Source: Chlamydiota bacterium
GTDB taxonomy: Bacteria; Chlamydiota; Chlamydiia; Chlamydiales; Parachlamydiaceae
Reading direction: 5' to 3'
NCBI GenBank assembly: GCA_013287145.1
Contig: JABDEI010000002.1
Span: forward strand, 1 to 49,185
Length of the DNA stretch: 49,185 bases
Numbering within the stretch: the stretch's first letter is position 1; the number at the start of each line of letters is the position of its first letter. The translations under genes and the position numbers were made by a program. The notes below the pieces were generated by a model. The model had not been told where the DNA came from. It saw nothing but the letters and a program-made list of their open reading frames with translations, and ran no database searches. Shown one piece after another: positions 25,895 to 43,689 of this stretch.

Positions 25895-28543
<2,649 letters not shown>

Positions 28544-32643: not shown

Positions 32644-35469
32644 TTAATTGCAACTCTGGCAAGAGGAAGTGCCAAAATTCGATTTCCAGCGGCTCCTCCT
32701 ATCTAACACAATTATTTCGCGTCTTCGAACAGGTAAAAAGAACGTCTGATCGCAGCAGAAGTTAAAAGGATATGTTAAAGATATTTCACCCTGGATTCTT
32801 GTTTTGAAAGTTGAATCATGGGTGACACTGATGCTAAAAGAAAGATTATCACAATACCGTGACGTTAATCTGTATTCCGTTCCGTAAATGTCTCTACGGC
32901 ACCTATCCTCTTTATAATAATAAGCCCCCATCGCAAGATAAAAATCTATACAACACATTCTCATTAAATGGGACTCTAGTTCAAAATCAACTCCTCTAAG
33001 ACTGTTGAGATAATTTCTCCGACTTATGAAAAAGTCTCCGATAAAATCATCAAAAAAACAAGAGGAAACAAGCACTTTCTTCTTTCCTATAGGCAAATAT
33101 CCATTGATTCGCAAGTTCCAACACTTTCCAAGCATTTCAAATCCCACACCAAGTTGATTGAATTTGACATGATGGGCATTTCTATAATCATAATAGGCAT
33201 TTATTCCAAAGACTTGGTCTGTGAATTGCGGAGCAAATCTACAGCCAACTCCTAAATTGCCCGCATATTTATCACCCTTATCAAAACGATGGGCTCGCAA
33301 GTCCAAAAATGGCCACCAATTTTGATAATGAAAAGGAAAAGAAAGGGCTTCTATCGTCGTATAGCTGGTGTCATTTCCTATTGACTGCCCTTGATTTCGC
33401 CGTAGTGATAAAAAATATTGAGCATTGCTTGGAACCACAAACTCAACAAGCTCATCTGCACTAACGGGTCTCACAGAGACTACTGATCCAACAGGTTCGA
33501 GGGGTTCGACAGGGCCTACTACTTGCTGTACGGAACCTCCGGGATCGATTGAATCCTCAATAACGGGCATCACTGGTAGATTCGATTGATCCTGTTGTTC
33601 TTGTCGAACTTGTTGATCCTTTTGGTCCGCCAGTTGCTCCTGTTGAGTCCCTAGAAGCCGCGCTTCTAGTACCCATGTTGACATTTGCTCCAGTCGAATC
33701 CTCGGGTTCTGTTGAACTCTACTAATGGGTCTCATAGGAACAACTGATCCAACAGATTTGACAGGTTCGACCGGACCTACTTGTTCTTGTCGAATTTGTT
33801 GACCTTTTTGGTCCGCCAGTTGCTCCTGTTGAGTCCCTAGAAGCCGCGCTTCTAGTACCCATGTTGACATTTGCTCCAGTCGAACCCTCGGGTTCTGTTG
33901 AACTCTACTAACGGGTCTCATAGGAACAACTGATCCAACAGATTCAACAGGTTCGACCGGACCTACTAGCTTTACGGAATCCACTAGATCGATTGAACCC
34001 ACAACGGGCATCGCCGGTGGGTTCGATTGATCCTTTTGTTCTTGTCGAACTTGTTGATTCTTTTGGTCCGCCAGTTGGTTCTGGTGAGTCCTTAGGACCC
34101 GCGCTTTTAGTAACATTTGCTCCAGTCGAACCCTGGGGTTCTGGTGAACTCTACTAACGAGTTCTACAGGGGCTACTAATCCAACAGATTCGACAGGTTC
34201 GACCGGACCTATTCGCTGTACGGAATCTACGGGCTCGATTGAACCCATAATGGGCATCACCGCTAGGTTCAATTGATCCTGTTGTTCCTGCCCAACTTGT
34301 TGTTCTTGTTGGTCCGTCAGTTGGCCCTGTTGAGTTTCTAGGATCCGCGCTTTTAGGACCCATGTTGACATTTGTTCGAGTTGAATCCTCGGGTTCTGTT
34401 GAACTCCACTAACAAGTTCCACAGGGGTTACTGATTCAACGGGTTCGAGAGCTTCGACAGGAGCTACTAGCTGTACGGAACCTGCGGGGTCGTTTGAACA
34501 AATAGCAAGCATCATCGGTAAGTTCAATTCCCGTTGATCTTGTCGATCTTTTTGGTAGGCCAGTTTGCCCTGTTGAGTCCTTAAGATCCGCGCTTCAAGG
34601 ACCCGCTTCAGTCGAACCCTTGGGTTCTGTTGAACTCCACTAACAGGTTCCACAGGGGTTACTGATTCAACGGGTTCGAGAGGAGCTATTAGAGGTTCGA
34701 CAGGAGCTACTAGCTGTACGGAACCTGCGGGGTCGTTTGAACAAATAGCAAGCATCATCGGTAAGTTCAATTCCTGTTGATCTTGTTGATCTTTTTGGTA
34801 GGCCAGTTTGCCCTGTTGAGTCCTTAAGATCCGCGCTTCTAGGACCCGCTTCAGTCGAACCCTTGGGTTCTGTTGAACTCCACTAACAGGTTCCACAGGG
34901 GCTACTGATCCAACGGGTTCGAGAGCTTCGAAAGGAGCTATTAGCTGTGCGGAACCTACGGGATCAATTGAACCACTAACAGGCATCACTGGCAAATTCG
35001 ATTCCTGTTGATCTTGTCGATCTTGTTGGTCTTCTTGGTCCGCCAGTGGGTCCTGTTGATTTTCTAGGACCCGCGCTTGTAGGACCCATGCTGACATTTG
35101 CTCGAGTCGAACCCTCGGGTTCTGTTGAATTCCACCAACGGGTTCCACAGGGGGGACTAATCCAACAGATTCAACAGGTTCGACAGAACCTACTAGCTGT
35201 ACGGAATCTATGGGATCGGGATCGATTGAACCCACAACGGGCATCGCTGGTGGGTTCGATTGATCCTTTTGTTCTTGTCGAACTTGTTGATCTTCTTTGT
35301 CCGCCAGTTGCTCCTGTTGATTCCCTAGGAGCCGCGCTTGTAGGACCCATGTTGACATTTGCTCCAGTCGAACCCTCGGGTTCTGTTGAACTCCAAGGGA
35401 ACCTAATATAGTCGCAGAAAATGCTATCGATAGAAGAAAAAAAATAATAAAATTTGAAAAATTGTTCAT
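32644..35469 (-). CDS. Inverse-autotransporter-like barrel protein with eight N-terminal repeats
   Basis: The 941-residue protein has a signal peptide (1-24). Eight degenerate repeats of about 65-90 residues follow (about 26-690), each starting near (G/R)VQQNPRVRLEQM and rich in Gln, Val, Pro and Glu. The C-terminal domain (about 695-941) resembles the inverse autotransporter beta-domain: LSLRRNQGQSIG, WPFLDLRAHRFDKGDKYAGN, GVGCRFAP, FGINAYYDYR. That domain has many cysteines (CRFAP, CCIDF, CQSCN), consistent with the disulfide-linked chlamydial outer membrane. The usual order (barrel before passenger) is reversed here, so the repeats would be periplasmic or exposed by another route. Confidence 0.8.
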   Translation of the reverse strand: MNNFSNFIIFFLLSIAFSATILGSLGVQQNPRVRLEQMSTWVLQARLLGNQQEQLADKEDQQVRQEQKDQSNPPAMPVVGSIDPDPIDSVQLVGSVEPVESVGLVPPVEPVGGIQQNPRVRLEQMSAWVLQARVLENQQDPLADQEDQQDRQDQQESNLPVMPVSGSIDPVGSAQLIAPFEALEPVGSVAPVEPVSGVQQNPRVRLKRVLEARILRTQQGKLAYQKDQQDQQELNLPMMLAICSNDPAGSVQLVAPVEPLIAPLEPVESVTPVEPVSGVQQNPRVRLKRVLEARILRTQQGKLAYQKDRQDQRELNLPMMLAICSNDPAGSVQLVAPVEALEPVESVTPVELVSGVQQNPRIQLEQMSTWVLKARILETQQGQLTDQQEQQVGQEQQDQLNLAVMPIMGSIEPVDSVQRIGPVEPVESVGLVAPVELVSRVHQNPRVRLEQMLLKARVLRTHQNQLADQKNQQVRQEQKDQSNPPAMPVVGSIDLVDSVKLVGPVEPVESVGSVVPMRPVSRVQQNPRVRLEQMSTWVLEARLLGTQQEQLADQKGQQIRQEQVGPVEPVKSVGSVVPMRPISRVQQNPRIRLEQMSTWVLEARLLGTQQEQLADQKDQQVRQEQQDQSNLPVMPVIEDSIDPGGSVQQVVGPVEPLEPVGSVVSVRPVSADELVEFVVPSNAQYFLSLRRNQGQSIGNDTSYTTIEALSFPFHYQNWWPFLDLRAHRFDKGDKYAGNLGVGCRFAPQFTDQVFGINAYYDYRNAHHVKFNQLGVGFEMLGKCWNLRINGYLPIGKKKVLVSSCFFDDFIGDFFISRRNYLNSLRGVDFELESHLMRMCCIDFYLAMGAYYYKEDRCRRDIYGTEYRLTSRYCDNLSFSISVTHDSTFKTRIQGEISLTYPFNFCCDQTFFLPVRRREIIVLDRRSRWKSNFGTSSCQSCN
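33470..35400 (-). repeat. Passenger repeat array of the barrel protein
   Basis: Eight DNA repeats of roughly 190-300 bp encode the (G/R)VQQNPR units. Units 3 and 4 are shortened (KRVLEARIL replaces EQMSTWVLEARLL) and nearly identical to each other. Read one frame off, the DNA gives Gly-rich text such as STGANVNMGPT and ESTGATGG, resembling the collagen gene. Confidence 0.7.
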
Positions 35470-36086: not shown

Positions 36087-36848
36087 TTAAAACCCGTCCA
36101 CTGTATGTAGGTCATTTCCAACTTTGGCAAACTCTAGCAAAAGCAGATCGTCATATACTTGTTGATGTTGATTTCGTTCTATTTTGTACTCAACCACTCC
36201 CTCAAGACCAACAATATCGGGTGCATTTACGTCGGTGTATTTGATTAGCACGAGAGTAAAATCTAGGGATGGAAAATAGCGATCGAGTGCGTCTTTTATC
36301 TCTTTAGCCTGCTCTTGGTTTTTTATAAAATGGCTTCCATCTTCACTCCAGAGGCTGCGAATAAAAAAAACTTTTCCGGGATAGTCGCGCAGCTGTCTGA
36401 ATCTGGCAATCCTCCTCGTGTATTTTATTTTAAAAAGTTCTAGTTGCTTTTGAAGTTTATCAATCTCTTCATAGGCATCTAATCCTGCGCCCTCATGGTA
36501 AAAAATGATGTTATAGAAAGTATTTTTGAGGCTATTGGGATTTTGTGTCAGATCTGGAATCTGAATAATGTGGTCTTCTGCTGTAAAATATTGAAAATCG
36601 GTATAAAATAGATTAAGAAAGCCTTCATGGTCTCCTGTGACTAACCAATCAAATGGAAAAGCTGACTGTCTCAGCTGACAATCTCTTAAGGAAAGGGCAA
36701 TTTCACACCAAGATCCCAAGCTAACAAACAAGGGTTTTTGCTCATTTGCGATCTCGCCTTCGAAGTTAAAATCGATGGTGGCTTGTAAAGGAGCGATTAC
36801 AACCGCTAGTCGGACTACAAGAAGTGCTAAAAGCGATGATCTCATCAT
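36087..36848 (-). CDS. DUF1796 papain-like protein with signal peptide (copy 1)
   Basis: The 253-residue protein has a signal peptide (1-23) and the DUF1796 signature LFVSLGSWCEIALSLRDCQL followed by FPFDWL. The conserved Cys48 and later His/Asp residues underlie the proposed papain-like peptidase fold; no activity is proven for the family. It is the last gene of the operon, five bases behind its paralogue. In another frame, 36020-36115 encodes a plausible extra C-terminus (WTGFNDDIPEAIAKVFELL), so the annotated end (DLHTVDGF) may result from a frameshift. Confidence 0.75.
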   Translation of the reverse strand: MMRSSLLALLVVRLAVVIAPLQATIDFNFEGEIANEQKPLFVSLGSWCEIALSLRDCQLRQSAFPFDWLVTGDHEGFLNLFYTDFQYFTAEDHIIQIPDLTQNPNSLKNTFYNIIFYHEGAGLDAYEEIDKLQKQLELFKIKYTRRIARFRQLRDYPGKVFFIRSLWSEDGSHFIKNQEQAKEIKDALDRYFPSLDFTLVLIKYTDVNAPDIVGLEGVVEYKIERNQHQQVYDDLLLLEFAKVGNDLHTVDGF

Positions 36849-36853
36849 GAAGG

Positions 36854-37603
36854 TTAATGTTTATTTTCTAACGCGAGTTTTGGATCATTGACATATTTCA
36901 ATAATTTTTTACTCAATAAACTCTCATGATCTGTACGGGGATATTTCGCTAAATTTATTCTTAAGATGTTATCAGTTAAGATGAGATCGCTCTCGTCATT
37001 TTCATCAAATATATTGGTTATTACCAAGATAAAATCTAAGTTAGGAAAACATTTCTTTAAAACCGAATTTAATCTATTGGCCCAATCGGTGGAAATTTGC
37101 AGGGCCTCTTCATTAGGCCAATAGAGTGTAGGGTTAGTCGCTTCTATATAGGGGATTCGTATGAAAAAAACTTTGCCCTGATATTCATTAAGTTTATAGA
37201 ATCGATCGATTCTCCTTTGATATTTTTCTCGCAATTCCGGCAAAGGCTCAAAATCATGACGAAACTCGATATGGTAATAGCTATTCACCAAAACGTGATT
37301 GTTCCAAGCAAGAAATTCTTCATCCAAGAAGTGCTGAAAACCATTTTCGATTAATTCTATAAATTTGTTCCCATCGATTGTTAGCAGCCAATCCAATGGG
37401 AAAGCGGCATGTCGCAGCCCGGAAAATTCTAGGGAATAGGCGACATCGCAATTTGACCCCAAACTTACAAATAGTGGGGGAAAAGTCTTATCTGTAATAG
37501 CCTCATTTCCATTTAAATCCTGGTGAATGATGACCTCGGCATAGCATGCGTAAACTTGCAAGAAAGCGAGAAAAAAAGAGAAGATACGCCATGAGATGCT
37601 CAT
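36854..37603 (-). CDS. DUF1796 papain-like protein with signal peptide (copy 2)
   Basis: The 249-residue protein has a signal peptide (1-22) and the same core as its downstream paralogue: LFVSLGSNCDVAYSLEFSGL, FPLDWLL, and a second conserved segment YQGKVFFIRIPY. Cys52 is the candidate nucleophile. The family is often encoded beside glycosyltransferases, so a link with glycan assembly is more likely than general proteolysis (inference). It starts two bases after the GT10 gene, in a tightly packed operon. Confidence 0.75.
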   Translation of the reverse strand: MSISWRIFSFFLAFLQVYACYAEVIIHQDLNGNEAITDKTFPPLFVSLGSNCDVAYSLEFSGLRHAAFPLDWLLTIDGNKFIELIENGFQHFLDEEFLAWNNHVLVNSYYHIEFRHDFEPLPELREKYQRRIDRFYKLNEYQGKVFFIRIPYIEATNPTLYWPNEEALQISTDWANRLNSVLKKCFPNLDFILVITNIFDENDESDLILTDNILRINLAKYPRTDHESLLSKKLLKYVNDPKLALENKH

Positions 37604-37605
37604 AA

Positions 37606-38598
37606 TTATTCAGCAATGGCTTCGTATAAAATTTTGCCAAAGTACTCGGGAGAAAAGACTTTTGCTTCCGGGCTTTTGAGGAATGCGCTGATGTTGTCAA
37701 TGTATCGTTGATAGACCTCTTTTGGCATTGTTTTGATAAATTGATAAAGATCTTCTCTTGTTTCAAAATCGCGATAGTCGATAAAACAATCTTTTGGAAT
37801 AAATCGTTCGATATTGTCAGCTCCCCAATAGATCGGAACGCAAGCCGCCGTAAAACATCCAAAGATTTTTTCTGTAATATAACCGTTAAGCCCTTTTGTA
37901 TTTTCAAAGCAGATGCAAAAACGGTAATTTTTGATGATAGAAATTTTCTCGGGGCCGGCATAATCGCCTGGGATAGATCCTCGAAAATCTCTATAATATC
38001 GTTTTATCCAATATCTGCCATAGATCTCAAACTCCCCTAACGGCTTTGTTTCAAAAAACTCTACCATTTTCATTCGCTCTGAATAAAGCTCGTTTTTTCG
38101 TTCGGGATATTCATTATCAGATCCGGAAACCATCACGCACAATTTTTTTTCTTCGAAAGACGGAATGTCATCCACCATCGGCCTCAAATAGGGATAATAG
38201 AGCTTATAAAATTTTTTGCCATCGACCACATCATCGTTCCAAGTATAGACTCGTGAACATGGTTCAAAATAGGCATCTTGCAAAATTAAGGGTTCCAGCA
38301 AAAAAAGAACAAGTTTCTTCTTTGGAAATATTGCTAGATACATAGGGTCCACAGTATTGTTAAACACGATAATTTTCTTCAGATCCCGATCATAGCGAAT
38401 CTCTTCTTCATAGTAGCCTTGATCGTGTCCATTGAAAAACTGATTAGAGACCCGAAGGGAATAGCCTGCTGATTTTACCAAATTTAAATCTATGGGAAAG
38501 TCATAGAAATCCAATCCAGGAAGAATGTCTACTCTGCAGGCATAATCAGCCGCCAGTGAAGAGAAAAAACAAGATATAGCTATTAACATCTTTAACAT
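37606..38598 (-). CDS. GT10 alpha-fucosyltransferase with signal peptide
   Basis: The 330-residue protein has a signal peptide (1-17) and the GT10 donor-binding motif (225-260): FCICFEN, then GYITEKIFGCF and VPIYWGADNI. This motif is diagnostic for alpha-1,3/1,4-fucosyltransferases that use GDP-fucose, as in Helicobacter and animals. A bacterial cytosolic enzyme would not need the signal peptide. It starts one base overlapping the preceding GT25 stop (TAATG), implying translational coupling. GDP-fucose synthesis genes are not in the window. Confidence 0.85.
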   Translation of the reverse strand: MLKMLIAISCFFSSLAADYACRVDILPGLDFYDFPIDLNLVKSAGYSLRVSNQFFNGHDQGYYEEEIRYDRDLKKIIVFNNTVDPMYLAIFPKKKLVLFLLEPLILQDAYFEPCSRVYTWNDDVVDGKKFYKLYYPYLRPMVDDIPSFEEKKLCVMVSGSDNEYPERKNELYSERMKMVEFFETKPLGEFEIYGRYWIKRYYRDFRGSIPGDYAGPEKISIIKNYRFCICFENTKGLNGYITEKIFGCFTAACVPIYWGADNIERFIPKDCFIDYRDFETREDLYQFIKTMPKEVYQRYIDNISAFLKSPEAKVFSPEYFGKILYEAIAE

Positions 38599-39534
38599 TA
38601 TTTTTCTCCTGTTTGGTCATAAAAAGGATGTGCGTTATCCGTGCTGGCATTAAGAAGATTGCTCACTAAATCATATGTCAATGAGTAACGGTTAATATCG
38701 GGTGGGAGATAATTTTCTAGATCATAGGGTAGAAAAATTTGATGAGTGAGCGACCAATCTAATAGTTTCTTAATGCCTGATCTACGGATGATCATGGAAT
38801 GGGTGGCAAATCTAGCGGAGATTCTTTGAAAATCGGGGCTGATTTTTGTTCTGACGGTATAACGGGGGGGCATACCTGGCCTCAAGGCTGCAGTCCATGT
38901 CGGGGCGTTCAGCAGCACCGGAAGCAATGAGATATTCACCTTCAGCCACTCGATAATCTTGGTCGGTAAAGAGGACATCCCAATTTTCTTTGCCGATGAA
39001 CGCATCGAGCTTGTCGATTAAAGCAGGGATAATCCTGGGGTCGCTGATCACTGTGATATCATCTTCCATGACCCATATGGTTTCATAGTTAGAGTCCCAA
39101 GCATCTTTTAGAACAGAAATATGGCTAAGCGCACAGCCCAGAGTCCCTTTAGCCATACCCTGGGTGAAATAAGCTCTGCCAATTTTGCTCATATATTCAT
39201 GAAGAGGCTCTCCATTCATTTCCGTGGGGTAGCAAGTAGCAAAAAGCTGTTCCATGCCCACAGCACACTTTAAGCCTATATCATTGATGGCTTCGAGTGA
39301 CAATTCCCAGCCATTTACTGCTGAAAAGCGATAAGGGAAGATGCCGTAATGATGTAATTCAGCGGATGCTTGCGCAAATTTTTCAGGCCTTTTATCGAGG
39401 TTGATCATATAGATGAAATCGATATTTCGAATCTGATGAATATCGGATTTTCCCTCTGTTTTTTTGAGATGATCAACCAAATCAGCATGCACGAAGTTAC
39501 AAAAAAAGAGCGCCGTTAAAAAAAAACGCATCAT
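38598..39534 (-). CDS. GT25 glycosyltransferase, frame broken at a C7 tract
   Basis: The first frame (39534 to 38812) encodes a signal peptide and most of a GT25 domain: IDFIYMINLDKRPEKF, FSAVNGW, LGCALSHISVL and the metal motif VMEDD. The second frame (to 38598) supplies the end, RFATHSMIIRRSGIKKLLDW and YDQTGEK. The switch falls at seven Cs (G7 on the plus strand, 38864-38870); six or nine would join the frames into a protein of about 311 residues, the length of its paralogues. GT25 covers bacterial LOS galactosyltransferases and animal collagen galactosyltransferases. As written, the product loses its C-terminus. Confidence 0.8.
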
Positions 39535-40472
39535 TACTTATCTAGATATGTGGGTGATCCATTATCAGAGTCTCCCCCGTGAATATTGGTAACGATATCT
39601 TTATTGCACGCATAAATGTTAATTCCGGGCACAAGAAAATAATCGATGTCATAGGGAAAGTAGACTTTATATGTTATAAAGAAGTCTAAAAGCTTCTTTA
39701 TTCCGGATCTGTTAATAATCATGGATGCCGAACCAAAACGCATTCCAATCTTGGTGAGATCGGCATTAAGAGGCGTTCTTCTAAGGTAGTAATCAAGCGG
39801 CTGGAGATGTACAAGCGGTCTTGGACGAATTACTGTGCAAGGAACAGGTTTTCCATCCCCACCTTTGATTTCATTATCAGTGAATAGTATGTCCCAATCG
39901 GGAGCTTGGCGATTCAAGCCATTAAGTAAAAAAGAGAGCTCACGCGGATTGCTGATCACTTTGATATCATCTTCCATGATCCAAATAGTCTTGTACCCGG
40001 AGTCATAGGCATCCTGAAGGATAGACAAATGGCTCAAAAGGCATCCGATTGCACCGCGTGATAGGGAATGGCAATAGTAAGCGACCCCTTCTTCCTTCAT
40101 GATTTCGAAGCTCATATATTCTTTATTGTCAACATGGCGATAAACGGAACAAATAGGGCCCTTTGGCATCCAAGAATCGTAGACGATTCCTAATTCATCG
40201 AGGGCTTCGAATGGCAATTTCCAGCCATTGACGGCAGAAAAGCGATAGGGATGTATGCCAAAAGGCTCAAGAGCCTTCATGGTACGCAGATATCTCTCAG
40301 GCCTCGGATCGAGATTAATCACATAAATGAAATCGATATTTCCGATACCGTTGGGCTCTGGTTTGTTTTCAGCTTTCTTGAAATATTTTTCAATTCCGGC
40401 ATCCAAAGTACAAAAACAGGAAGAAAAAAACAGTAAACAAAGAAATATATTAATTTTCGACAAAGCTTTCAT
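39534..40472 (-). CDS. GT25 glycosyltransferase with signal peptide
   Basis: The intact 312-residue GT25 has a signal peptide (about 1-22), IDFIYVINLDPRPERYLRTM, YRFSAVNGWKLP, GAIGCLLSHLSILQDAY and the donor/metal motif IWIMEDDI. The end GGDSDNGSPTY is shared with the third copy. It is collinear with the GT25 at 41263 and must come from duplication. It abuts the FkbM gene before it and overlaps the next GT25 start by one base. It probably transfers a hexose to a surface glycan or protein. Confidence 0.85.
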   Translation of the reverse strand: MKALSKINIFLCLLFFSSCFCTLDAGIEKYFKKAENKPEPNGIGNIDFIYVINLDPRPERYLRTMKALEPFGIHPYRFSAVNGWKLPFEALDELGIVYDSWMPKGPICSVYRHVDNKEYMSFEIMKEEGVAYYCHSLSRGAIGCLLSHLSILQDAYDSGYKTIWIMEDDIKVISNPRELSFLLNGLNRQAPDWDILFTDNEIKGGDGKPVPCTVIRPRPLVHLQPLDYYLRRTPLNADLTKIGMRFGSASMIINRSGIKKLLDFFITYKVYFPYDIDYFLVPGINIYACNKDIVTNIHGGDSDNGSPTYLDK

Positions 40473-41273
40473 TTAATACTCCAAATACATTCCTAAAGAC
40501 AATTTAAAATAAGCGTCAAATAATTCACGGCTCAAAAAAATCGCATGTCCTATTATTCCAGGTTGATACCGATGGGAAAGCAAGACAAAATTAGATTTTT
40601 CTAGAAATTCTTTTAATGCGGGATAATTCGTCATCCCCAATCGATGTGGATGGATGTAAGTCTTTATATACAGAATTTTTACCTTCTTCAATATATTAGG
40701 AGAGTTCTTAAGCACACCATATTCCGCTCCTTCAACTTCAAGCCGTAAAAGGTCTATTGTGTCGATCTGATTCTCTTTGCACCATGCATCCAAAGTTACG
40801 CAAGGAACCTCTATCTGAGGGCCTTTGCAAAAGATCTCCATCCCCTTTTTAAGAGGTAGCAAGGAACTAGCGTATCCGTACGCGGGTTCATTATTGTTTG
40901 GCCCAAGACAGATATTGAATAACGCCGACCCATTATAACTACTGAGAGCAAGGCTATGAAGTTCGACATTAGTAACTTGAGCTTCAGCGACATTCTTCTC
41001 TAATTCTTTGAAGCCATTCGGATCGGGCTCGAAGGCGATAATGCGGCCATTGGGCCAAATTTTTGCCGCCCTCACCGTATCTTGACCACGAAAAGCCCCT
41101 GCTTCAAGGATGACCGGGTTGTAAGGGAGGAATTGCGGCAGCCAGTTTAAATCGATTGCATTATAGCTACTGAATAAATTGATCCCTTCATAATGATCTG
41201 CTCTTAACAACGCGAAGTTGAAAAGAACGAGATAAAAACAAAAATAAAGCGTTTTTAGGCAATTATTTTTCAT
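40473..41273 (-). CDS. FkbM-type methyltransferase with signal peptide
   Basis: From the ATG at 41273 the product has 266 residues: signal peptide (MKNNCLKTLYFCFYLVLFNF), SAM motif PVILEAGAFRGQDT, post-motif IIAFEPDP and the FkbM signature TIDLLRLEVEGAEYGVL. FkbM proteins O-methylate sugars or polyketides. The chosen start overlaps the GT25 stop by 11 bases and follows GGAAG; a start at 41309 would add 12 residues before the signal peptide. It forms a duplicated FkbM-GT25 cassette with its neighbours. Confidence 0.85.
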   Translation of the reverse strand: MKNNCLKTLYFCFYLVLFNFALLRADHYEGINLFSSYNAIDLNWLPQFLPYNPVILEAGAFRGQDTVRAAKIWPNGRIIAFEPDPNGFKELEKNVAEAQVTNVELHSLALSSYNGSALFNICLGPNNNEPAYGYASSLLPLKKGMEIFCKGPQIEVPCVTLDAWCKENQIDTIDLLRLEVEGAEYGVLKNSPNILKKVKILYIKTYIHPHRLGMTNYPALKEFLEKSNFVLLSHRYQPGIIGHAIFLSRELFDAYFKLSLGMYLEY

Positions 41274-42195
41274 ACGTTGGACTTCCATTATCTGATATGC
41301 CTCCAGCAATAGTTGTTACGATATCTCTTGTACAGGCATATAACTTAATGCCCGGCGGAAAGAAATATTCCATGTCGTAAGGAAAGAAAAGATGATAAGT
41401 CTTAAAGTAGTTCAATAGTTTTTCTACCCCGGATCGCCTTATAATCATTGAATAAGCCCCGAAACGCAGTCCAAGCTTCACAATATCTGCATTGACATAC
41501 TGGCGTTGATAGTAATAATCGAGATCTTGGTATTGAAAATTTGGCCTAGGACGTATCCCCCCACAATAGAAGCGGCTCCCATCTGCACCTTTGGTCTCAT
41601 CATCGGTAAAAAACACATCCCAGCCTGGTGCAAGACGATCTAATTGGTCGATTAAATCTGAGATGATATGAGGATCCTCAACTACTCGGATGTCATCTTC
41701 CATCACCCAAATCGTTTGATAACCCGAGTTATAGGCATCTTGTAATACTGAAATATGACTCAAGAGGCATCCGATAGCGCCGCGCGATAGAGAGTGGCAA
41801 TAATAGGCAATGCCCTCTTCCTTCATCACCTCAAAACTCATGATCTCTTTGCCATTGACGTGGCGGAAGACAGAGCAAATCGGTCCGTGGGGCGTACCTG
41901 GTTGATAATTGGTGCCTAGATCGTCTATCGCATCAAAACTCAATTCCCACCCATTGACCGCAGAAAAGCGATAGGGGTAAACTCCATAGGGCTCAAGAGC
42001 TCTCATGGTATTTGCATACTTTTCTGGACGTTTGTCTAAATTGATCATGTATATAAAATCAATATTAGGCATTTTATGCAGGCCCATTTTATATTCTGCA
42101 GGCTTCAAATATTTTTCCAAAATGCTTGGATAATCTTTTGCTTCTGCAAATTGAAAAAAGGCTAAGGAAAGGATGAAAATCACAGCTTTTATCAT
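41263..42195 (-). CDS. GT25 glycosyltransferase with signal peptide
   Basis: From the ATG at 42195 the 310-residue protein has a signal peptide (MIKAVIFILSLAFFQFAEA) and a complete GT25 domain: IDFIYMINLDKRPEKYANTM, FSAVNGWELS, GAIGCLLSHISVLQDAY, WVMEDDI and the C-terminal RFGAYSMIIRRSGVEKLL. The start overlaps the preceding stop as ATGA, so 42231 (12 more residues) is less likely. It is closest to the GT25 at 39534. The protein would need an activated sugar wherever it acts. Confidence 0.85.
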   Translation of the reverse strand: MIKAVIFILSLAFFQFAEAKDYPSILEKYLKPAEYKMGLHKMPNIDFIYMINLDKRPEKYANTMRALEPYGVYPYRFSAVNGWELSFDAIDDLGTNYQPGTPHGPICSVFRHVNGKEIMSFEVMKEEGIAYYCHSLSRGAIGCLLSHISVLQDAYNSGYQTIWVMEDDIRVVEDPHIISDLIDQLDRLAPGWDVFFTDDETKGADGSRFYCGGIRPRPNFQYQDLDYYYQRQYVNADIVKLGLRFGAYSMIIRRSGVEKLLNYFKTYHLFFPYDMEYFFPPGIKLYACTRDIVTTIAGGISDNGSPTYEK

Positions 42196-42998
42196 GGATA
42201 AATCAAGCCTCCTAAACCTAACCCCAAGCATTTGACAAAGTAGGCATCATACATCTCTTGACTGACATAAACAGCAACTCCTCTTTCACCTTGTTCATAC
42301 CAATGCATAAGAGGAACAAATTGAGACCTTGTAAGGAAGTCTTTTACAAAAAAGTAGTTGCACATATCGACTCGATAGGGTCGAAAGAAACTTTGTAAAA
42401 TAATGATCTTGGTATTTTTTAAAATCCTGGAAGATCCTTCCAGAACTTTCAGTTCGAGTCCTTCAAGCTCTAAACTGAGAATGTCGATGCTCTCGATCTG
42501 ATTTTGCTCACACCAATCATCGAATACCACACAAGGGACTCGAAGCTGGGGTCCCTGATAGTAAGATTGCATCTCCTCTGTAGCAGGAAGCAGAGAACTT
42601 TCTTGCTCATTGGCCTCAGAAAGGTATAGCGTCGCCTTGCCGTTATAATTATTAAGGGCTAAGTTATATAAGTGTACTCTCTCCAACTTTTCATCAATAA
42701 CACGTTGTTGAAGTTCTATGAAAGCCATCGGGTTAGGTTCAAAAGCAATCAGATAGCGGTAGTACGGCCAGACTTTTGTGGCATAGACAGTCTGCTTTCC
42801 TTTATAGGCGCCTGCTTCAACAATGACTGGATTATATGGAAGAAATTGGACTAAAGCATTTAAGTCAACTTTCCCATAATTTTGAAATGTCTGTGTTCCC
42901 TCATAATAGATCACGGCATCTAAACGAAAGGAAAGGGCTACGAGCCCAAGACACAAGCCACAAGCCTTCAACAGAGACATCATCTTATTTTTCTTCAT
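42192..42998 (-). CDS. FkbM-type methyltransferase with signal peptide
   Basis: From the ATG at 42998 the product has 268 residues: hydrophobic leader (MMSLLKACGLCLGLVALSF), SAM motif PVIVEAGAYKGKQT, LIAFEPNP and the FkbM segment SIDILSLELEGLELKVLEG. It aligns over its full length with the FkbM protein at 40473. The start overlaps the previous gene by 14 bases, in the same manner as the other copy. The ATG at 43049 would add a 17-residue segment read inside the upstream gene. Confidence 0.85.
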   Translation of the reverse strand: MKKNKMMSLLKACGLCLGLVALSFRLDAVIYYEGTQTFQNYGKVDLNALVQFLPYNPVIVEAGAYKGKQTVYATKVWPYYRYLIAFEPNPMAFIELQQRVIDEKLERVHLYNLALNNYNGKATLYLSEANEQESSLLPATEEMQSYYQGPQLRVPCVVFDDWCEQNQIESIDILSLELEGLELKVLEGSSRILKNTKIIILQSFFRPYRVDMCNYFFVKDFLTRSQFVPLMHWYEQGERGVAVYVSQEMYDAYFVKCLGLGLGGLIYP

Positions 42999-43689
42999 AA
43001 TACCAAAACCATCCATCTTCATGCACAATGAGATTGTTTTCAAAGGCAAACCGATCCACAGCGCGCTTTACAGAAGACTCATACCCCCAGTTATAATCAT
43101 CTCCGCATAAAACACCATGGCCTTTGACAAAAGGAAACCACAATGTTATGTCCGTATACACTCCGTTATAATCATGGGTGGCATCTATATAAACCAGGTC
43201 GGGGTGAATCGTCAGAGTCGCCGCTGCTTCAGCACTCGACATACGCAATGGTATAATTTTATGGGTTAAACCGGCATGAATCACATTGGAAAGGAATTGA
43301 CGATACAGATTAGCCATATCAAAGGGGCTATTATCTTCATTGGGCGATCCCAGCCAATGATCGACAGCAAACACAATACCATCTTTTGGAATAGTCTCTG
43401 CAATATGCCGCGTGGATAAACCAAGCCATGAACCCACTTCAATGACGACTTTGGCATTTGTGCTTTTGAGCAAGAATTCCATCGATGGTCCATTGGCATA
43501 CCAGCCCTGTCCACTAAAAGGAAGTAGATCCACGGTATCATACGGGGGCGGCAACTTTTCATTTGCCCACGAAAAGCAGGGAACCATCAGACAGATTAGA
43601 AACATTATTTTTTTCAAATGATAATGTTTTGGATAAAAGGTATACGCTTTAAGACTCGTCCTACAGACGGATACAAATATGTTTTTCAT
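42985..43689 (-). CDS. SAM-dependent methyltransferase, first gene of the glycan operon
   Basis: The 234-residue protein has a class I methyltransferase core: KVVIEVGSWLGLSTRHIAE, VFAVDHWLGSP, and PDLVYIDATHDYNGVYTDI. A hydrophobic leader (IMFLICLMVPCFSWA, 28-42) is preceded by a basic 27-residue stretch. AGAGGT six bases before the ATG at 43689 supports the long form; the Met at 43605 would give a standard signal peptide. It resembles the Methyltransf_24 proteins in the window but is more distant. It heads the operon that runs to 36087. Confidence 0.8.
   Translation of the reverse strand: MKNIFVSVCRTSLKAYTFYPKHYHLKKIMFLICLMVPCFSWANEKLPPPYDTVDLLPFSGQGWYANGPSMEFLLKSTNAKVVIEVGSWLGLSTRHIAETIPKDGIVFAVDHWLGSPNEDNSPFDMANLYRQFLSNVIHAGLTHKIIPLRMSSAEAAATLTIHPDLVYIDATHDYNGVYTDITLWFPFVKGHGVLCGDDYNWGYESSVKRAVDRFAFENNLIVHEDGWFWYYEEK

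What the first reader, a model, noticed from the sequence alone, without database searches (positions are those of the whole stretch)
38864..38870. C7 tract switching a GT25 gene between frames: candidate phase variation
The reading frame breaks exactly at seven Cs (G7 on the plus strand). Removing one or adding two restores a protein that aligns to the two intact GT25 paralogues. Homopolymeric C/G tracts in surface glycosyltransferases are classic phase-variation switches, and chlamydial pmp genes use them.
Basis: partly seen in the sequence, partly recalled or inferred. Interest (0 to 1): 0.7.

Follow-up and report, generated by a model that had tools for sequence, protein, structure and literature searches.

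The report
Frame-broken sugar-transferase gene at C7 tract
One of three neighbouring sugar-transferase genes in a soil chlamydia-like bacterium is broken in this assembly exactly at a run of seven Cs; it looks like a fresh slippage mutation or an amplification error at a chance repeat, and nothing here shows that it is an evolved on/off switch.

Summary
On the minus strand a GT25 gene (39534 to 38598) is split into two open frames. Profiles and close orthologues place the switch inside a 10-nt interval that contains the C7 tract 38864-38870. Both halves are equally conserved, so the break is recent. The switch interpretation is only partly supported. None of 34 homologous genes (33 full length) has a G/C run above six. 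G/C runs of 7 or more are no commoner in this genome than chance, and many lie in intact housekeeping genes. Four of 30 such runs sit at frame breaks, more often the longer the run, including the conserved gene gmhA. Breaks at runs of 8 or more also occur in the nearest relative's assembly, apparently made from amplified cell pools, but not in two near-finished family members. So the cause is slippage at G/C runs, in cells or during amplification and assembly; one consensus sequence cannot separate these. Best reading: an ordinary slippage frameshift at an incidental tract. Phase variation remains possible (about 0.2).

The parts
38864..38870 (-). C7 tract (G7 on the plus strand) at which the GT25 reading frame breaks
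38812..39534 (-). 5' part of the third GT25 gene ('A'); ATG at 39534, premature TAG at 38812-38814; product lacks about the second half of the PF01755 domain
   Evidence: PF01755 2.2e-13, profile 3-113 of 199
38598..38864 (-). 3' part of gene A in the other frame (88 codons), ending at the natural TAA
   Evidence: profile match 5.7e-33; 64-71% identical to L116/L117
39534..40472 (-). intact GT25 paralogue B
   Evidence: PF01755 1.2e-12; 81% identical to its orthologue in G006
41263..42231 (-). intact GT25 paralogue C
   Evidence: PF01755 1.3e-12
40473..41309 (-). FkbM-type methyltransferase gene between C and B
   Evidence: PF05050 3.8e-17
42192..43049 (-). second FkbM-type methyltransferase gene
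   Evidence: PF05050 3.6e-15
37606..38598 (-). GT10 (fucosyltransferase family) gene directly downstream of A
   Evidence: PF00852 6.8e-17
36854..37603 (-). DUF1796 gene, same run of genes
   Evidence: PF08795 4.1e-16
36087..36848 (-). DUF1796 gene, same run of genes
   Evidence: PF08795 1.2e-16
39532..39536 (-). TAATG: stop of B overlaps start of A (translational coupling inferred)
   Evidence: sequence
38596..38600 (-). TAATG: stop of the 3' part of A overlaps start of GT10, with AGGAG in front; still intact
   Evidence: sequence

Best explanation
Gene A is a recently intact third member of a GT25 trio in a glycan operon (C - FkbM - B - A - GT10 - DUF1796 x2). By chance it carries a C7 run. 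A slippage event at that run shifted the frame, so translation ends about 16-18 codons past the tract, losing the second half of the GT25 domain and stopping about 215 nt before the GT10 start. It is an ordinary slippage frameshift at an incidental tract, not an evolved contingency switch. Shown: position of the break, conservation of both halves, absence of the tract elsewhere, chance-level tract frequency, and a length-dependent link between G/C runs and frame breaks in this assembly. Inferred: slippage as the cause, loss of enzyme activity, a mild polar effect on GT10. Not decided: whether the slip happened in the cells or in amplification, sequencing or assembly; I hold these about equally likely.
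For: Switch confined to 10 nt around the tract. A versus L117: 66% N-part, 71% C-part; versus L116: 66% and 64%; the same ratio as between intact orthologues, so no decay. TAATG junctions with both neighbours intact. G/C runs of 7 or more: 30 observed, about 45 expected. Broken: 1 of 23 runs of 7, 1 of 5 of 8, 2 of 2 of 9. A/T runs of 8 or more in 448 kb were at background under a mechanical test: 4 of 215 (1.9%) flagged against 1.6% of random sites; three of the four were looked at and none is a clear broken gene. Intact runs lie in ptsI-like, plsX, grpE, hisS, fadJ-like, gatC and other housekeeping genes. Syntenic cluster in G006 lacks A and has no G/C run of 7 or more.
Against: Of the four broken genes, two have glycosyltransferase domains and one is the heptose-pathway gene gmhA, and the intact runs of 8 or more include plsX and grpE, which is what selection on an envelope-variation system would also give; numbers are too small to judge. 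Short tracts can vary in known phase-variable species: C5/C6 at meningococcal NMB1760 (PMC5084427).
Confidence: 0.7

Rival explanations
1. Evolved phase variation: the C7 run is a slipped-strand contingency site that turns a surface-glycan GT25 transferase on and off, perhaps together with other G/C-run genes of this genome (gmhA, a GT-domain protein).
For: Break exactly at the run, gene otherwise intact and undecayed, envelope/glycan context, intact paralogues as backup. Homopolymer phase variation is documented or proposed in Chlamydiaceae pmp genes and upstream of lpxC (PMC6740158, PMC4514472). A relative carries a textbook-looking C11 between a signal peptide and an outer-membrane barrel (L176).
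Against: Tract short and absent from all 34 homologous genes; tracts not enriched genome-wide and present in housekeeping genes; no length variants seen; tracts in known systems are mostly longer (C. jejuni mainly G9-G10, PMC8355987; pmp poly-G 8-19, PMC6740158).
Confidence: 0.2
2. Technical error: the run length is wrong in the consensus (whole-genome amplification, PCR, sequencing or assembly) and the real gene is intact. This is the in-vitro half of the best explanation, listed apart because it changes the biology.
For: gmhA, found in 45 of 49 genomes of the set and mostly full length there, is also broken, at a G9. Two near-finished family genomes have none: broken coding runs 6/13 versus 0/9, Fisher p 0.046. 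G000 is 57% complete in 161 contigs.
Against: How G000 was sequenced is unknown. Illumina indels at a run of seven are rare. Two intact runs of 8 are in essential-type genes (plsX, grpE), against random error. The comparison is small and the lineages may really differ.
Confidence: 0.35
3. Recoding: ribosomes shift forward at the CCC-C site inside the run and make some full-length enzyme, so both a short and a long product come from one sequence.
For: The downstream frame is offset in the direction that tRNA-Pro slippage at CC[C/U]-[C/U] gives; about 1% frameshifting was reported in E. coli at a CCC-C next to the start codon (PMC4519876).
Against: That position is the most shift-prone one and the frequency is low; no conserved run in orthologues, which simply have one frame; no stimulatory element sought or known.
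Confidence: 0.05

Closest known systems
Poly-G/poly-C slipped-strand phase variation of pmpG-type genes in Chlamydia (PMC6740158)
   Same: Frame break located at a G/C homopolymer in a phylum relative; downstream coding part not decayed
   Different: There tracts are mostly 8-19 nt, recur at fixed places in many paralogues and vary between strains; here 7 nt, a single gene, no tract in homologues, no variants seen
Poly-G contingency loci of Campylobacter jejuni (flagellar, capsule and LOS loci; PMC8355987)
   Same: G/C run within a gene whose product probably builds surface glycans
   Different: C. jejuni tracts are mainly G9-G10 and numerous, with measured switching; here tract frequency is at chance level and switching is unmeasured
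Phase-variable glycosyltransferases of Helicobacter, Haemophilus and Neisseria (GT25 and GT10 families among them; from general knowledge, not tested here)
   Same: Same enzyme families (GT25 next to GT10) and repeat-mediated frame change
   Different: No population or strain evidence here, and no tract in the adjacent GT10 gene
Ordinary frameshift pseudogene or homopolymer indel error in a draft genome
   Same: One frameshift at a homopolymer, all else intact, no conservation of the tract
   Different: Nothing found that differs; reads are needed

Membership tests
GT25 glycosyltransferase (PF01755) | Match to the family profile above its cut-off | tested here: met
   upstream frame alone 50.9 bits versus cut-off 24, but only profile positions 3-113 of 199; intact B and C cover 3-194 and 3-196
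Slipped-strand (homopolymer) phase-variable gene | Homopolymer inside the coding region, with the frame break at it | tested here: met
Slipped-strand (homopolymer) phase-variable gene | Tract length varies within a population or between strains | not testable with these tools
   one consensus genome, alone in its genus in the set; no reads or second strain held
Slipped-strand (homopolymer) phase-variable gene | Tract kept at the site in related genes (supporting feature) | tested here: not met
   no G/C run of 7 or more in 34 homologous genes, none at this site in the closest orthologues
Slipped-strand (homopolymer) phase-variable gene | Tracts over-represented in the genome and concentrated in surface genes (supporting feature) | tested here: not met
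   30 seen versus about 45 expected; many in housekeeping genes
Slipped-strand (homopolymer) phase-variable gene | Off-frame part under continuing selection | tested here: inconclusive
   C-part as conserved as N-part, as expected; but a very recent break or an artefact would look the same
Programmed ribosomal frameshifting | Conserved slippery site with the frame offset kept in relatives | tested here: not met
   orthologues are single-frame and lack the run

The most novel reading that the evidence does not exclude
A G/C-run contingency system acting on envelope sugars and other variable functions in environmental Chlamydiota: GT25 (C7), gmhA (G9) and a GT-domain protein (G8) in this genome, an HsdS-like gene (C9) in G006, and a C11-gated outer-membrane barrel in another Parachlamydiales genome.
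Probability: 0.17. Interest if true: 0.55.

Novelty: new member of a known kind. Interest (0 to 1): 0.25.

Why it matters
If the tract does switch, it would extend repeat-driven variation of surface glycans from the human and animal Chlamydiaceae to soil-associated relatives, where immunity of the vertebrate kind is unlikely to be the driver. If not, it is a caution: frame breaks at G/C runs in draft genomes from amplified DNA should not be read as switches without reads.

Tried and rejected
(1) A 13-nt insertion as the lesion: distant homologues have a shorter loop and suggested it, but the closest orthologues share the longer loop, so it was dropped. (2) A conserved G run in gmhA as sign of a conserved switch: only L087 (G042) shares a G9, in frame; the others spell the same glycines with mixed codons. 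(3) Loss of mismatch repair as cause: a MutS with an open frame of 871 aa is present. (4) A/T runs as equal break sites: at background; three of four flagged places were inspected, and the clearest (L103) looks like an ordinary junction of two genes. (5) L173 C7 as a break: natural overlap of a murD-like gene and the next gene. (6) hemF at L045 C7: in frame across the tract; it stops soon after for another reason.

Full report
Setting. The window is contig 2 of a 2.17-Mb, 57%-complete draft genome in 161 contigs, the only one of its genus in the set searched. Relatives found by protein search are mostly Parachlamydiaceae and other Chlamydiae metagenome bins. By its name that bin belongs to the Barre Woods mini-metagenomes, sorted soil particles amplified by MDA (PMC6243002; the link is my inference).

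What is there. The minus strand carries a compact set of genes: FkbM methyltransferase, GT25 (C), FkbM, GT25 (B), the broken GT25 (A), a GT10, and two DUF1796 genes. Gene A begins at 39534 on the stop codon of B (TAATG). Its 3' part ends at 38598 on the start codon of GT10 (TAATG again, with AGGAG in front). G006 keeps the C - FkbM - B order but lacks A.

The break. A profile of 12 intact homologues matches the upstream frame to residue 222 and the other frame from position 38864 on. The closest orthologues L116 and L117 share the residues on both sides, which confines the switch to GCCCCCCCGT. The upstream frame ends in TAG at 38812-38814. Its product keeps PF01755 profile positions 3-113 of 199, so it is most likely inactive (inference).

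Age of the break. A and L117 are 66% identical before and 71% identical after the break; A and L116 66% and 64%; intact orthologue pairs show similar ratios. No other disabling change is seen. The break is therefore recent, or not real.

Is the tract special? No homologous gene has a G/C run longer than six, and at this site the orthologues use other codons. The genome has 30 G/C runs of 7 or more; a Markov model expects about 45. Many are inside intact genes for PtsI-like, PlsX, GrpE, HisS, FadJ-like, GatC and others. The tract by itself is what chance gives.

What else breaks at G/C runs. All 30 were examined. Frame breaks coincide with four: this one (7); C117, a protein with a glycosyltransferase group 1 domain (8), whose paralogues read through the same motif; gmhA on C65 (9), which is full length in most relatives; and, less surely, the start of an unknown gene on C132 (9), judged from its ribosome-binding site only. 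That is 1/23, 1/5 and 2/2 for lengths 7, 8 and 9. A/T runs of 8 or more, in a 448-kb sample, gave no excess. Slippage at G/C runs is therefore the likely cause.

In cells or in the tube? In G006, 3 of 15 runs of 8 or more sit at frame breaks: an HsdS-like gene, a PHP-family gene and a leucine-rich-repeat gene (names read from the sequence, not profiled). In two near-finished genomes (G027, G029) none of 24 does. Counting coding runs only, G000 plus G006 have 6/13 broken versus 0/9, Fisher p 0.046. This favours an artefact of amplified drafts, but lineages could differ, the sample is small, and how G000 was made is not known.

Function. In known chlamydial cases variable poly-G tracts in pmpG genes are mostly 8-19 nt long and differ between strains (PMC6740158); C. 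trachomatis populations also show mixed tract lengths, for instance upstream of lpxC (PMC4514472). C. jejuni tracts are mainly G9-G10 (PMC8355987), though meningococcal C5/C6 changes are recorded (PMC5084427). C7 is thus at the low end but not impossible. Forward slippage of tRNA-Pro at CCC-C exists (PMC4519876) and could give traces of full-length product.

Verdict. The mechanism most likely is a slippage frameshift at an incidental tract (0.7, split about evenly between cells and technique). An evolved switch is possible (about 0.2) but did not meet the two supporting tests that could be run (conservation and enrichment), and the main one (length variation) cannot be run here. I state that intact copies exist and leave out any account of which change would mend the gene.

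Noticed in passing
L050:1542-2045 (G000:C65), tract 2001-2009: gmhA (SIS_2, heptose pathway) ends early at a G9 run, while it is full length (about 195-245 aa) in most of the other genomes in which it was found.
   Followed up: yes
L056:3-3565 (G000:C117), tract 1983-1990: Large protein with a glycosyltransferase group 1 domain splits into two frames at a G8 run; paralogues in the same genome read through the motif.
   Followed up: yes
L061, minus strand, tract 912-920 (G000:C132): A start with a good ribosome-binding site is out of frame with the long proline-rich repeat ORF beyond a C9 run.
   Followed up: partly
L176:6787-7896: Signal-peptide ORF, then a C11 run, then a Legionella_OMP barrel (PF05150) in another frame, next to a GT25 gene: a much better contingency-locus candidate than the one assigned.
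   Followed up: partly
L205:2035-2043 (G006:C11): HsdS-like type I restriction specificity gene (named from sequence) broken at a C9 run.
   Followed up: partly
L207:2059-2067 and L211:2054-2062 (G006): PHP-family and leucine-rich-repeat genes (named from sequence) broken at G9 and C9 runs.
   Followed up: partly
L171:3897-3904: Two same-strand open frames change over at a C8 run; no Pfam match to either part.
   Followed up: partly
L087 (G042 gmhA): gmhA of a genome in another family carries a G9 at the same glycine codons, in frame.
   Followed up: yes
G000, all contigs: Of 30 G/C runs of 7 or more, 22 read G and 8 read C on the contig strand as given (binomial p 0.016), although contig orientation should be arbitrary.
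   Followed up: no
window 25895-28540: 881-aa collagen-like protein of Gly-Pro-Thr-type repeats with a non-repeat C-terminal domain.
   Followed up: no
window 32644-35469: 941-aa protein with repeated 'VQQNPRVRLEQM' modules and an inverse-autotransporter beta-domain (PF11924).
   Followed up: no
window 41557-41562: GT25 paralogue C contains a six-base G/C run, in frame, the next longest in the trio.
   Followed up: no
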